Position numbers and translations under genes: made by a program. From NCBI GenBank assembly GCA_034401795.1, contig CM067369.1, positions 89,809,579-89,873,578 on the forward strand: a DNA stretch of 64,000 bases, read 5' to 3'. This DNA is from Chaetoderma sp. LZ-2023a (lineage: Eukaryota > Mollusca > Caudofoveata > Chaetodermatida > Chaetodermatidae). This document shows, piece by piece, positions 16,780-54,275 of the stretch (its first letter is position 1; each line of letters begins with the position of its first letter). The notes under the pieces are model-generated. The model was given only the letters and a program-made list of their open reading frames with translations, ran no database searches and was not told the origin of the DNA.

Positions 16780-18099
16780 TTTCAACAGCCGACAAGTAAT
16801 GTCCTATATACCTCGATTGGAATCGGCAATGCATAAGTTCACAACGTAATCACATATTTTGAGCATACTCTATATTCTGTGTTTATTCTATTTTAATTGT
16901 CGGATTTATTTAAAATTATATTATAACATATTCTATATGTCGTATTCATGTATGATAATTCATGCATTACTTAGCATTTTAACCCTCGAATTTCTCATAT
17001 GTCCATTGCAGACCAAGAGAAGTCTGTTTTTGAAAAATTACCACTCGAATGGCTGGCTCGATTATCGAGGCGGACATTGCAGTGATAAATTTTCAAAAAT
17101 AGTCTTCAGTTGGTCTGCAAATGAACAGTTCTGAAGACTACTACTGCAGAAGCCGTTTTGGGCTGATGTAACTCATTAGCTCTCTCTATGGCGACTGTCT
17201 GCTCTAACAGTTAATGCTAATTACGCATTAAAACAAAACGCCTGCAGAAATACGCGTAGATGCAAGATGCTGAAACTAAATTAGAGGTCTTTTACCTGAG
17301 ATAATCCAGTATAACTGACATTTGATACAGCCAAAACAGTCAAATTACAACAACCGTCAGTCAATTTTATTGCAAAATACAGTAACTAATCGAGGATGTG
17401 TGCGAGTGTGGTTTTTATCTAAAATATGTTTTTAAGACATTTCAGTGATGCAATCTCCAAATCCCGAATAGATCAAATTCCAATCAACACTACAGACAAG
17501 CTGGTGATTATTTCAATTGTAATTTGACTGGAATTCTAAGCACTGCTTCAAATCAAACTCGTTTGAAAATATTCAACATAATATCTAGTACAGCTTTAGG
17601 AATTTTATCGCATTTATTATGTAATGTTAAACAAAACAACCCATGTTAATGCAATATAAATAATATATTGCTTATGATCCACAGTGCAGGTAATTAACAG
17701 TCACAACCATTGTTGTCTTAAAATTTGAACCAAATCGGACCAGCTGTTTCCGAGATATCCATAAATATGGAATTTGATCAGATCCGAATCAGGATTTTTT
17801 CTGGGGCATGGCCAAAGTCTGGAGTTCCTCTTTCACGATGCGAAGTACAAGCCTAATTCCAATACCATCTTCCTCTTCCAGTTTCAGAATATTCAACACA
17901 TTCAACAAATTAAATTGTAAATGGCGTCTCGACTTCGGTATTTCGGATGTAAGGTGTTGATTTTTATCAACATATTCTGATAATATGAGCTTTATTAAAA
18001 GATGCTCATTGGCTTCGTACATGTATGTATGCATGTAGGTATTTCTATGGCGCCGATTCCGAAATTAATCGCTCAAGGGCGCTTTACAAAATTAAAATT
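16780..18099. other. AT-rich spacer with one palindromic TTAA element
   Basis: No gene recognised. Contains palindromic element copy 1 (listed separately). At about 17720-17770 is 'tttgaaccaaatcggaccag' followed by 'ctgtttccgagatatc', a phrase resembling dispersed non-coding repeats elsewhere in the window (compare 36200). The remainder is unremarkable AT-rich sequence. Confidence 0.5.
16979..17175. repeat. Palindromic TTAA element, copy 1
   Basis: Starts with TTAACCCT at 16979. Left arm: 'GCAGACCAAGAGAAG' then a TTTTTGAAAA-type block and TTACCACT. A short centre 'ggctcgattatcgaggc' follows. The right arm is the mirror: AAATTTTCAAAAATAGTCTT, then 'TTGGTCTGCAAATG'. The left TTAA flank is clear; the right end is eroded. 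Best-preserved outer arms of all copies. Confidence 0.8.
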
Positions 18100-18426
18100 T
18101 TAAGAAAAAATATGCGTTTTTAGAAGAGACTTAAAAGGTTCAAGTTTATCACAGTTCCGATTGTGTGCTGGGAGGTTGTTCCAGAGTTTTGGGCCAGCTT
18201 TTGAAAAGGCTTGTTGTCCAGCCATTAGATTACCGGGTGGAACTACACACAACAGTTGCTCGCTTGATCGCAGGGATCTTGGTGCTATTCTCTTCGTTAT
18301 CAACGAACAGAGGTATAGTGGTGCAAGTCCATGCAGGTATTTAAAGACTAGAAGTGCAATTTTGTAGTTGATTCGCTCTTTAACGGGTAGCCAGTGAAGT
18401 TGTTTAAGTACAGGAGTTACATACAA
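18100..18426 (-). mobile_element. Non-LTR retrotransposon ORF2, C-terminal 108 codons
   Basis: An intact open frame on the minus strand reads as the end of a Jockey/CR1-group ORF2. 'TPVLKQLHWLPVKERINYKI' is the near-universal 'HWLPV..RI.YKI' motif, followed by 'LHGLAPLYL', 'QAFSKAGPKLWNNLP' and 'FKSLLKTHIFS'. The reverse transcriptase core is absent, so it is a 5'-truncated insertion. No interruption is seen in this piece, which suggests a younger copy than most LINE fragments here. Confidence 0.88.
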
Positions 18427-18904
18427 CGAGCTGGTGTAAAGGACGGACTAAATATTTGGATTTCAGAGATGTTATTTTCAAGCAATGTATCGCTAATACT
18501 ATTTATCATTAATCAATTGGGCATGCCTTTGAGAAGTATAGAATGGAGTTTCTTGGTACAATAATCACCCCGTCCCGTCTTGTGTAGGCCCTATTCTGAC
18601 GCTTTAAGATGTGTTCACTCGATGGGCTTTACCCGAATTAGATATAAGAAATGACACCTTTCATTATCCATGAGAGTGAGTGTGTGGGTGGTTGGGTGGG
18701 TGGATGGGTGGGTGGGTGCTATGATGGTAAATAATGGGTTGGTGTATTGGTGGGTTGGTGGGTGGGAGGGCGGGTGGGAGAGTGCGTGAGTGCGTAAGTG
18801 AGCGAGCGAGCTGGCAGTCTGCGGGCTGGCAGGCAAGCGGGCTGGTGGGCTGGCGGGCTGGCTGGCTGGCGGGCTGGCGAGCTGGCGGGAGTGAGTGAGT
18901 GTGT
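18427..18904. other. Spacer ending in G-rich GGGT/GGCT repeats
   Basis: Starts unremarkable. From about 18680 it becomes 'gggtgggtggatgggtggg' and then GGCTGGCGGGCT-type sequence to 18895. The G-tracts could form quadruplex structures, but no gene is seen. Confidence 0.6.
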
Positions 18905-19055
18905 GGTGGGTTAGCGAGTGTGAGTGAGTGAGTGAGTGAGTGAGTGAGTGAGTGAGTGAGTGAGTGAGTGAGTGAGTGAGTGAGTGAGTGAGTGAGTGAG
19001 TGAGTGAGTGAGTGAGTGAGTGAGTGAGTGAGTGAGTGAGTGAGTGAGTGAGTGA
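18905..19055. repeat. (GTGA)n tetranucleotide microsatellite
   Basis: About 150 bp of nearly pure GAGT repeats. The Ser-Leu-Thr-His open frame on the minus strand is a by-product. Confidence 0.97.
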
Positions 19056-19119
19056 GAGTTTGTGCATGTAGCGTGCGTACGTGCGAGCTTGGGTGGACGG
19101 ATGGATGGATGGATGGATG

Positions 19120-19292
19120 GAGCAGTAGCAGTAGCAGTAGCAGTAGCAGTAGCAGTAGCAGTAGCAGTAGCAGTAGAAGTATCAGTAGCAGTAGCAGCAG
19201 TAGCAGTAGCCGTAGCAGTAGTAGTAACAGTAGCAGAGCAGTAGCAGCAGCAGCAGCAGCAGCAGCAGCAGCAGCAGCAGCAGCAGCAGTAG
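19120..19292. repeat. (AGTAGC)n and (AGC)n microsatellite
   Basis: AGC/AGT hexamer pattern passing into pure (AGC)n at about 19245-19289. The poly-Ser and poly-Ala frames are artefacts. Confidence 0.95.
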
Positions 19293-19379
19293 TAATTTAA
19301 TCAGCGTTGACAATGTTTGGTAGTCTCCGTAAATAGGTGATTAATCTTATAAGTTTCTTGTTACGTGTTAAGGTTGCTT

Positions 19380-19925
19380 TTGAAACCTATCGAAATTGGC
19401 GATGATCCGAAATCCAAAATGACCGCCAGCCACCGTAGGCCATTTTTAAAATTGGTTTCCGGATGGTAGCTCTGCTGCCATTTATCCGATCACTTTGAAA
19501 CTTCAGAGGGTGGTTTGGCTAGGTCTTGAAAAGAAACTCTCGAATGCGACGATAATTCAATATCCGAGATGGCCGCCAGCCAATGGTCGCCATCTTGAAA
19601 ATTGGTTTCTGGACGATAACTCTGGAGAAGAAAGCTATTGTAAATTGACAATGGTATTAATTCCAAGATGGCCAAATGGATTTCGGGATGATAAATATGT
19701 TGCCATTCATCGGATCGCTTTGAAACATCATAGGGTGGTTAGACGATACTAAATCCAAGATGGCCGCCAGCTACCAACGGTCATCTTCCAAATTTGTTTC
19801 CGAATGAAGAAATTTATCGAAATCTACGAAAATCTGAAATCCTATATGGCCGGCAGCCACTGGTGGCCATCTTGAAAATTCTTTCCGGATGGTACCTTAT
19901 GACCTTTTCGCCGATCGCTTTGAAA
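19380..19925. repeat. Imperfect repeats with AAGATGGCCGCC / GCCATCTT hairpins
   Basis: Four to five diverged units, each with 'AAGATGGCCGCCAGCCA' (or a variant) followed within about 10 bp by 'GGTCGCCATCTTGAAAATT', then 'GGTTTCCGGATG' and 'ATCGCTTTGAAACTTCATA'. Copies start near 19409, 19560, 19660 (partial), 19750 and 19835. Within a unit the AAGATGG and CCATCTT parts are inverted and can pair. The core resembles YY1 sites (AAGATGGCGGC), but it is found here as a dispersed repeat. Confidence 0.7.
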
Positions 19926-20199
19926 CTTCATATGATGACTGCTCGCCTGAGGAAGAAATCATTATTGTGATGTATTATGCGCTGTTTGTGGAGCTCTTGT
20001 TGTTGAAATGTAATTGTGCGCTAATGTTTAGTTTCGACGTGCAACTAGTATGTCAGTTTATCGGACGGTCTGCCGTTCTGTCACTAACACTTTGGACATT
20101 TCGCAACTATCGCGCGTCGCGCCCGTTTAGATTATCATCTAATCATTATAACGTAGTAGTTTGGCTCTCCACTGCACTCATTAGGTGTCTATAAGGCTG

Positions 20200-53580: not shown

Positions 53581-53582
53581 CA

Positions 53583-53622
53583 TGCACGCACACACACACA
53601 CACATACACACACACACACACA
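53583..53622. repeat. (CA)n microsatellite
   Basis: A short, slightly interrupted CA tract. Confidence 0.9.
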
Positions 53623-53684
53623 CCGGTATTCTTAGGAGCTATGTTAACTATATAAAGTATTACTTCACGCCATTATATGATGTA

Positions 53685-53745
53685 AGTAGATTTGCCTTCA
53701 TATGCCATTGCATAGCCTGAAAGAAATAAAGATAACTTGAAATTT
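53685..53745 (+). repeat. LINE/SINE-type 3' tail with AATAAA
   Basis: 'cttcatatgccattgcatag' and 'cctgaaagaaataaagataa' match the ending at 37075-37125. Same retroposon family, same orientation. Confidence 0.6.
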
Positions 53746-53759
53746 GAATGGGAAACATT

Positions 53760-53919
53760 TTAATTTAACACTGGAATGATTAGCTCGGTTACAGAGTCAG
53801 TTATTCCAGTTCAAATTTTCCACAAATACTCTTATCTTGGCCTAGAAATCGACATTCCTGCAACGACGGCAATGGCCGTATTGGCCGACTTGACTATTAG
53901 CCCTCTTGTGTCAGCTTAA
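53760..53919. repeat. Palindromic TTAA element, copy 9 (left part short)
   Basis: 'ttaacactggaatgattagc', centre 'tcggttacagag', then 'tcagttattccagttcaaat', 'ttccacaaatactcttatct', 'tggcctagaaatcgacattc' and outer right 'ggccgacttgactattagcc'. It ends at the TTAA 53916-53919, which also begins copy 10. Confidence 0.75.
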
Positions 53920-54125
53920 CACCTTAATGGTATGTCAACCAAAAATGGCATCTGTAGAGGTCTTGGGCAATAAGAATTTGCATGCCAAGATAAGACAGTC
54001 ACTGCTGGAATGAATGCCCCGGTTACTGAGCCAGTCAATGCGGTGGTGAAATTTAAAAAAAAGTATTTTCTTGGCCGGCAAACGGACACTGCCAAAGTAA
54101 AGTTTTTTATTTTCCTGCACATTAA
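53916..54125. repeat. Palindromic TTAA element, copy 10
   Basis: TTAACACCTTAATGG at 53916; TTAA at 54122-54125 on the right. Core 'actgctggaatgaatgcccc', 'ggttactgagccagtcaatg', 'cggtggtgaaattt', 'ttcttggccggcaaacgg'. Both TTAA ends present, length about 210 bp. Confidence 0.8.
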
Positions 54126-54149
54126 CCGAATAAATAATGGCCTAGGTGG

Positions 54150-54275
54150 CTAAAAGTGCAATGGTCTTGAGAATTATCCATTTGCAGTCGAGCAACCGGC
54201 TATTTTCTTTATAAATCTCAGTGGTCGATTAAAAAATAGTATTCTTTTCGCCTCGGCCATTGCCTGGTTAATTTA
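54150..54275. repeat. Palindromic TTAA element, copy 11 (centre deleted)
   Basis: 'caatggtcttgagaattatc', 'catttgcagtcgagc', 'ggctattttc', a short 'cagtggtcg' centre, then 'aaaaaatagtattcttttcg' and 'cctcggccattgcctggtta'. The outer arms are kept, while the middle of the palindrome is mostly gone. This is the pattern expected from hairpin-mediated deletion. Confidence 0.6.

What the first reader, a model, noticed from the sequence alone, without database searches (positions are those of the whole stretch)
16979..54275. Family of almost fully palindromic ~200-bp elements flanked by TTAA
At least 11 copies share the same order: TTAACCCTTTAATGG, 'ccatttgcagaccaagagaa', TTTTTGAAAATTTACCACTG, a centre 'gactggctcgataaccgagc', then the reverse complement of each block and ...GGGTTAA. 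Each copy is a single hairpin from end to end. TTAA targets with ends beginning CCC are typical of piggyBac-type transposons, so this looks like a foldback piggyBac-derived MITE. I am not aware of a described one of this form.
Basis: partly seen in the sequence, partly recalled or inferred. Interest (0 to 1): 0.72.

Follow-up and report, generated by a model that had tools for sequence, protein, structure and literature searches.

The report
Hairpin-cored jumping DNA with TTAA ends
The window carries decayed copies of a very common family of short jumping DNA whose middle folds back on itself, and comparison of its subfamilies suggests that the fold-back was kept perfect while the family was spreading and decays once a copy has landed.

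Summary
The repeat family (F1) is real: 11 copies in the window at E<=1e-5, plus a weak twelfth. It is a TTAA-targeted, piggyBac-like MITE of about 232 bp between its two TTAA. It is not fully palindromic: a ~131-bp palindromic core lies between two different ~35-bp outer arms; all 52 copies typed on both sides are A/B (48 others could not be fully typed). A 200-kb sample holds 47 cores, scaling to 0.26-0.95 million copies; the element makes up 4.9% of it. One copy sits at a TTAA inside another repeat with element-free counterparts. The genome has 119 piggyBac-transposase domain matches, but no partner with matching ends was identified. The surprising part: subfamilies defined by outer arms alone differ at 24 of 100 outer but 2 of 131 core columns, and those two form one base pair. 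A second hairpin family (F2) also changes mostly by paired substitutions between subfamilies, while landed F1 copies mostly mutate one arm at a time. Hairpin integrity thus seems enforced in spreading lineages, by selection or arm-to-arm copying. Nearest described kind: coral CMITE.

The parts
16979..17168 (+). F1 copy: TTAACCCTCG left end, short left arm, core about 17000-17131; right end decayed
   Evidence: 103.0 bits, E=4.6e-31; fold z=-8.5
23435..23635 (-). F1 copy; TTAACCC at 23435 is its B end
   Evidence: 92.6 bits
23877..24063 (+). F1 copy, right end TTATTGGGTTAA at 24063
   Evidence: 81.0 bits
24188..24303 (+). right half of an F1 copy; the related loci L002 and L003 hold about 50 bp more at this point
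   Evidence: 69.1 bits
24332..24490 (-). F1 copy ending in TTAATGGGTTAA
   Evidence: 56.8 bits
24596..24796 (+). F1 copy starting TTAACACTTTAATGG, B end decayed
   Evidence: 93.8 bits; used as the first genome query
33513..33704 (-). F1 copy starting TTGACACTTTAG
   Evidence: 97.8 bits
39396..39630 (+). the only near-full-length F1 copy of the window: TTAACCCTTTAGTGA ... TTTATGGGTCAA
   Evidence: (77.8 bits)
53761..53899 (+). F1 copy, left part missing
   Evidence: 64.5 bits
53916..54125 (-). F1 copy, TTAACACCTTAATGG at one end, TTAA at the other (54122-54125)
   Evidence: (84.9 bits)
54135..54271 (-). weak F1 remnant (match to 54253) next to CCTGGTTAA
   Evidence: E=3.4e-5
   Evidence: 34.6 bits, E=5.9e-10

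Best explanation
A very high-copy, mostly old MITE family (F1) that was cut and pasted into TTAA sites by a piggyBac-type transposase supplied in trans. Shown: TTAA-bounded ends, CCC/GGG termini, one empty site, many piggyBac transposase domains in the genome, asymmetric outer arms around a palindromic core. Inferred: that the mobiliser is piggyBac. Also inferred: the perfect core hairpin was kept in the lineages that spread, either because only copies with a matched core are mobilised well (an internal binding site for transposase or host factor, or a structure) or because one arm is recopied from the other by template switching in those lineages; after landing the two arms decay almost independently.
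For: TTAA at both/one/no end in 28/33/6 of 67 against 0/12/55 for the displaced control. L018:1501-1740 lies in another repeat; its joined flanks with a single TTAA align without a gap at the junction to 7 element-free places in 6 loci, 2 with TTAA there and 5 with NTAA. 119 PF13843 matches in the genome, over 20 of them with open frames above 500 codons. Outer arms nearly always adjoin a core: 196 of 214 outer-arm hits, and by my reading 10 of the other 18 run into a remnant of it. Clustering 68 copies on outer columns only gives groups of 34 and 28 (six singletons); consensuses differ at 24 of 100 outer and 2 of 131 core columns, the two being the mirrored pair 68/170, G-C against A-T. With groups defined by that pair itself the counts are 22 of 101 and 2 of 126, Fisher p=7e-7. 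In the second hairpin family F2, variable position pairs keep pairing in 3 of 5, 8 of 11 and 8 of 9 between subfamilies. In landed F1 copies one-sided changes prevail, 1277 cells against 123 mirrored (134 copies, 64 pairs), and arms of one copy are hardly more alike than arms of different copies (0.195 vs 0.210; 0.158 vs 0.175).
Against: No autonomous element with TTAACCCTTTAATGG ends was seen; four transposase loci were sampled and only one candidate 5' end was found, with another terminal sequence. F1 and F2a gave no significant match to these flanks (best E=0.12). Only one empty site was accepted, and the two counterparts with TTAA (L009, L023) are near-identical loci, probably one duplication; the genome-wide search with it did not complete (and ten repeats). 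Only 28 of 67 copies keep TTAA at both ends. CCCT inside TTAA is the commonest four bases but only 11 (left) and 14 (right) of 28. 25 of 104 copies have neither G-C nor A-T at pair 68/170. The core-versus-arm contrast rests on copies found by searches in which the core is the longest block, so ascertainment favours copies with a good core. After pairwise realignment the within-subfamily contrast is modest (core 0.15-0.19, outer 0.17-0.27). F2 was found in a scan for palindromes, its search seeds were palindromes, and its consensuses (35, 12 and 14 copies) include some letters with under 60% support.
Confidence: 0.72

Rival explanations
1. Kolobok-type MITE: the TTAA duplication was made by a Kolobok transposase.
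For: Kolobok also uses TTAA (PMC6004289, passages). A SWIM/YqaJ open frame lies next to the window cluster; its link to any transposon superfamily was not tested.
Against: Kolobok ends begin with purines (T2-MITE AGGRR; AG in all of the ten full-length frog elements of the passage); here the commonest four bases inside TTAA are CCCT. piggyBac transposase domains are plentiful. Kolobok transposases were not searched for.
Confidence: 0.08
2. The mirrored core changes come only from replication template switching (quasi-palindrome correction), without any selection for the hairpin.
For: The mechanism is described for RNA stems (PMC8794818, abstract and start of text). Mirrored changes exceed independence in landed copies: core 123 against 58 expected, slid pairings 32-48; terminal-repeat pairs 35 against 20 expected.
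Against: If general, it should act strongly on landed copies too, but there one-sided changes outnumber mirrored ones tenfold and only 40 of 66 copies have arms closer to each other than to other copies' arms (p=0.054). Template switching tied to transposition would escape this objection.
Confidence: 0.3
3. The low core divergence reflects module exchange: one core was combined with two older sets of outer arms.
For: Core differs at 2 of 131 columns while arms differ at 24 of 100. F2 cores occur in different sequence contexts.
Against: Arms and core state are linked: among the 25 commonest combinations printed (125 of 134 copies) there are 28 G/G/G and 18 A/A/A but only 3 G/A/A and 2 G/A/G. 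The one core difference is mirrored and goes with the arms.
Confidence: 0.2
4. The core is kept because its transcript is a long hairpin processed to small RNAs.
For: The consensus of one subfamily folds with 206 of 238 bases paired, -162 kcal/mol. Near-palindromic MADE1 elements gave rise to mir-548 genes (PMC1784062, passages).
Against: No expression data here; no Rfam family reached its gathering score in the window. The large number of decayed copies speaks against a host-useful RNA from most (inference).
Confidence: 0.07

Closest known systems
CMITE families of Acropora corals (PMC2872659; parts 1-3 of 4 read)
   Same: Short TTAA-flanked elements with ends mostly CCCTTT; internal region more conserved between families than the terminal repeats; piggyBac transposons in the same genome.
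   Different: CMITE are about 100 bp, about 1600 copies estimated in A. millepora, and the parts read do not describe the interior as a palindrome. F1 is about 232 bp between its TTAA, with a 131-bp palindromic core and an estimated 0.26-0.95 million copies.
MER85 / PGBD3, human piggyBac MITE (PMC3459987, passages)
   Same: Non-autonomous piggyBac-type element with an internal palindrome needed for transposase binding.
   Different: MER85 has a 16-bp imperfect palindrome next to one end; here the palindrome is central and about eight times longer. Binding was not tested.
MADE1 (PMC1784062, passages)
   Same: Almost entirely palindromic MITE whose RNA forms hairpins.
   Different: 80 bp, related to Hsmar transposons; F1 has unlike outer arms.
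Kolobok T2-MITE of Xenopus (PMC6004289, passages)
   Same: TTAA target; MITE.
   Different: Termini begin AGGRR, not CCC.

Membership tests
piggyBac-superfamily MITE | TTAA target-site duplication | tested here: met
   28/33/6 of 67 both/one/none against control 0/12/55; one empty site
piggyBac-superfamily MITE | Terminal inverted repeats with a CC[C/T]T terminal motif (definition as in PMC2872659) | tested here: met
   Consensus TTAA|CCCTTTAA at both ends; among the 28 copies with TTAA at both ends CCCT is the commonest, 11 left and 14 right
piggyBac-superfamily MITE | Autonomous partner with matching terminal repeats in the genome | tested here: inconclusive
   119 transposase domain matches; four flank pairs fetched, one candidate 5' end, TTAACCCTTAGCACTCGG, not matching beyond CCCTT
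piggyBac-superfamily MITE | Short, uniform size, many copies | tested here: met
   240-bp model with near-full-length copies of similar size; 47 cores in 200 kb
piggyBac-superfamily MITE | No coding capacity | not tested
   Inferred from length only
Kolobok MITE | TTAA plus purine ends (RR/AGGRR) | tested here: not met
   Ends begin CCC
Foldback element (whole element one inverted repeat) | Left and right halves complementary along the whole length | tested here: not met
   Outer arms A and B differ; 52 A/B, 0 A/A, 0 B/B, 48 with an untyped side
CMITE-like conserved-core MITE | Internal region more conserved between subfamilies than the ends | tested here: met
   2 of 131 core against 24 of 100 outer columns

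The most novel reading that the evidence does not exclude
The palindromic core is a working part of the mobile unit. Hairpin integrity is restored in every amplifying lineage, by selection for a matched core during mobilisation or by arm-to-arm recopying tied to transposition, so that several families (F1 and the F2 group) have diversified by paired substitutions while staying near-perfect hairpins, and landed copies lose the pairing.
Probability: 0.35. Interest if true: 0.65.

Novelty: new variant of a known kind. Interest (0 to 1): 0.45.

Why it matters
Why some MITEs have strongly conserved interiors that encode nothing is left open for coral CMITEs in PMC2872659. Here the conserved interior is a long palindrome whose changes between subfamilies are mostly paired. 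That makes the question testable: transposase binding, hairpin structure, and template-switch repair predict different patterns in orthologous copies and in mobility assays. The family may also account for about 5% of a 2.4-Gb genome (organism not identified).

Tried and rejected
Symmetrical (A/A or B/B) elements: none among the 52 copies typed on both sides. Core-less elements: 8 of 59 outer-only hits span the core position; seven (L018, L027, L019, L013, L037, L015, L048) lie within or at the edge of known F1 copies and look like misalignment of one arm; the eighth (L021:994-1084) overlaps a weak core hit at 1048-1133. Arms without a core: 18 of 214. Strong ongoing conversion between arms of landed copies: not supported. 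A first TTAA count with +-8 bases (52 of 71 both ends) was dropped because the terminal repeat often has a second TTAA at +8; the +-4 count replaces it. Empty sites: 5 of 52 joined flanks gave junction-spanning hits; alignments were read for three. L018 was accepted; L037 has gaps at the junction; L030's hits fall in other F1 sequence; the two of L048 were not inspected. The break at 24949 as an empty site relative to L002/L003: rejected, homology ends inside the terminal repeat. Exact 30-mer of the core in viral contigs: 0. Rfam at gathering threshold: 0. F1-F2 arm similarity: weak (31, 5 and 70 of 2000 shuffles reach the score), not claimed as homology. Literature searches (listings) showed no description of this element; most subscription journals are missing there and Repbase or Dfam were not available.

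Limits: the 200-kb sample was 20 stretches at round coordinates on contigs C1-C16, none from C17 or the small contigs. L002 and L003 were dropped before most counts because they share a larger repeat with the window, L001 because it lies in the window. The right end of the 240-bp query was not in the consensus; I completed it by eye from copies such as window 24188-24303; the majority consensus of the hits then gave nearly the same end.
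Full report
OBSERVATION. The window is part of a 2.44-Gb genome, contig C11; the organism was not identified. The terminal block alone is not significant in the window. The first genome query returned 75 matches (many places counted on both strands) from 5020 candidates of which 40 were scored, so that count is a floor.

ANATOMY. The consensus of one subfamily reads TTAA | CCCTTTAATGGTCAA, arm A (about 35 bp, A-rich), a core of about 131 bp that is a near-perfect palindrome around a 5-base loop GTTAT, arm B (about 35 bp, unlike A), TTGACCATTAAAGGG | TTAA; in the other subfamily the terminal repeats match for only about 12 bases including TTAA. 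In one search, 230 halves were scored: 67 A, 83 B, 80 neither. Among copies with both halves scored, 52 were A/B, 20 B plus untyped, 11 A plus untyped, 17 both untyped, none A/A or B/B. The untyped halves include truncated arms and arms of the second subfamily. The predicted fold of the first subfamily's consensus pairs 206 of 238 bases, of the second 196 of 238. The ten window copies folded range from z=-8.5 to 0.0 (mononucleotide shuffles).

TARGET SITE. Among 67 near-full-length copies (L002 and L003 excluded), TTAA lies within 4 bases of the expected boundary at both ends in 28, at one in 33, at neither in 6. The same test 30 bp further out gives 0, 12 and 55; chance at one end is 0.086. 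With the divergence seen, loss of TTAA by point mutation is expected (inference). L018:1501-1740 lies in a copy of another repeat (F2b). Its two flanks joined at one TTAA match seven element-free places in six loci of held sequence; two have TTAA there (L009, L023, which are near-identical loci and probably one duplication), five have NTAA. Of 52 joined flanks, five gave junction-spanning hits; the other four were not accepted or not inspected (see Tried and rejected).

ABUNDANCE. Twenty 10-kb stretches at round coordinates hold 47 cores, in 11 of the 20; variance/mean is 4.7. Scaled to the genome this is 0.57 million (bootstrap 0.26-0.95 million), and 4.9% (2.1-8.2%) of sequence by the 240-bp model. 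Copies are commoner where TTAA is denser outside copies (r=0.80; Spearman 0.59, p=0.007, n=20), which fits TTAA targeting but also a general A+T preference (GC correlation -0.73). Among 88 longer copies the median pairwise distance is 0.26; the closest pairs are 0.045 (L009/L023, shared flanks) and 0.055 (two copies in L036). The family looks mostly old.

WHO MOVES IT. The genome has 119 matches to the piggyBac transposase domain PF13843, each over the curated cut-off; some rows are parts of one element. One candidate 5' end, TTAACCCTTAGCACTCGGATGTCG, was seen, without its 3' partner, and does not match F1 beyond CCCTT. F1 and F2a show no significant match to these flanks. So piggyBac is inferred from target and termini, and the partner is unknown. 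Other TTAA superfamilies were not searched for.

THE CORE. Clustering 68 copies (of 134; those with at least 75 of 100 outer and 110 of 132 core columns) on outer columns alone gave two groups (34 and 28; six singletons). Their consensuses differ at 24 of 100 outer columns and 2 of 131 core columns; these two are columns 68 and 170, which pair with each other, G-C in one and A-T in the other. Of 104 copies with letters at both columns, 40 are G-C, 39 A-T and 25 something else. Core state and arms are linked. Within landed copies (134), changes in the 64 inner pairs are one-sided in 1277 cells, mirrored in 123 (58 expected if independent), both-sided but unpaired in 88; pairings slid by 1-7 columns give 32-48 mirrored. 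The 17 terminal-repeat pairs give 189 one-sided, 35 mirrored (20 expected), 44 unpaired. Besides 68/170, the clearest mirrored core variants are 80/158 (4 copies) and 81/157 (7 copies). Arms of one copy are only slightly closer than arms of different copies (0.195 vs 0.210 and 0.158 vs 0.175; 40 of 66 copies, p=0.054). After realignment without the model, within-subfamily distances are 0.15-0.19 in the core and 0.17-0.27 in the arms; between subfamilies about 0.17 and 0.25-0.28: the core is as different within as between subfamilies, the arms more between.

A SECOND HAIRPIN FAMILY. A scan of held sequence for palindromes gave 82, of which 51 are F1 and 31 others; by eye about 25 of the 31 share one theme, here called F2. 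Three F2 subfamilies (73 copies assigned 42/17/14 by best seed; consensuses from 35, 12 and 14 copies) have cores with 44, 46 and 45 of 46 possible pairs, and variable position pairs keep pairing in 3 of 5 (a-b), 8 of 11 (a-c) and 8 of 9 (b-c). F2b has TTAACCCTTTCA...TGAAAGGGTTAA ends; F2a is embedded in a longer conserved repeat. Comparing 9 paired to 1 one-sided change between subfamilies (F1 pair plus F2 b-c) with 123 to 1277 in landed copies gives Fisher p=4e-9; cells are not independent and b-c is the most favourable F2 comparison, so this is a description rather than a strict test.

INTERPRETATION. The pattern is what one expects if matched arms are needed, or are remade, while an element spreads, and are free to decay afterwards. 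Template switching is a known way to copy one arm onto the other (PMC8794818, abstract), and an internal palindrome is needed for transposase binding in MER85/PGBD3 (PMC3459987, passages). Which of these acts here cannot be told from this sequence. The main weakness is ascertainment: searches weight the core, and F2 came from a palindrome scan with palindromic seeds.

KNOWN OR NEW. Coral CMITEs are the nearest described case: TTAA, CCC ends, interior more conserved than the ends, piggyBac in the genome (PMC2872659, parts 1-3 of 4). What is added here is that the interior is a long palindrome with mostly paired changes between subfamilies, and the very high copy number. I found no description of this element in the searches named in Tried and rejected; Repbase and Dfam were not available.

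Noticed in passing
L042:3321-3406, L036:8326-8429, L027:305-384 and others: Second hairpin family F2 with at least three subfamilies (GAATATTTTGAAA..AATTTGACTG cores), F2b with TTAACCCTTTCA ends.
   Followed up: partly
window 23735-23803; weaker at 54531-54575 and 39101-39186: Decayed F2-like palindromes (E=3e-5 to 6e-4).
   Followed up: partly
window 22705-24949: The F1 cluster sits in a larger dispersed repeat, 90-95% identical at L002 and L003. Upstream open frames at 21998-22603 (SWIM, below its cut-off) and 22635-23126 (YqaJ); L002 lacks 22789-23275.
   Followed up: partly
window 21169-21780: Nested long inverted repeats (arms 126 and 136 nt, 97% and 95% complementary), another fold-back structure.
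   Followed up: no
window 13501-16779: 34-bp satellite, about 96 copies, next to a 500-N gap at 13001-13500.
   Followed up: no
window 25058-25872: AC dinucleotide run of 815 bp, 100% matches.
   Followed up: no
window 40280-41125: Open frame with HTH_Tnp_Tc3_2 and DDE_3 domains, a Tc1/mariner-like transposase.
   Followed up: no
window 60178-63888: Two long adjacent open frames on the minus strand (466 and 769 aa) without a Pfam match at E<=0.01.
   Followed up: no
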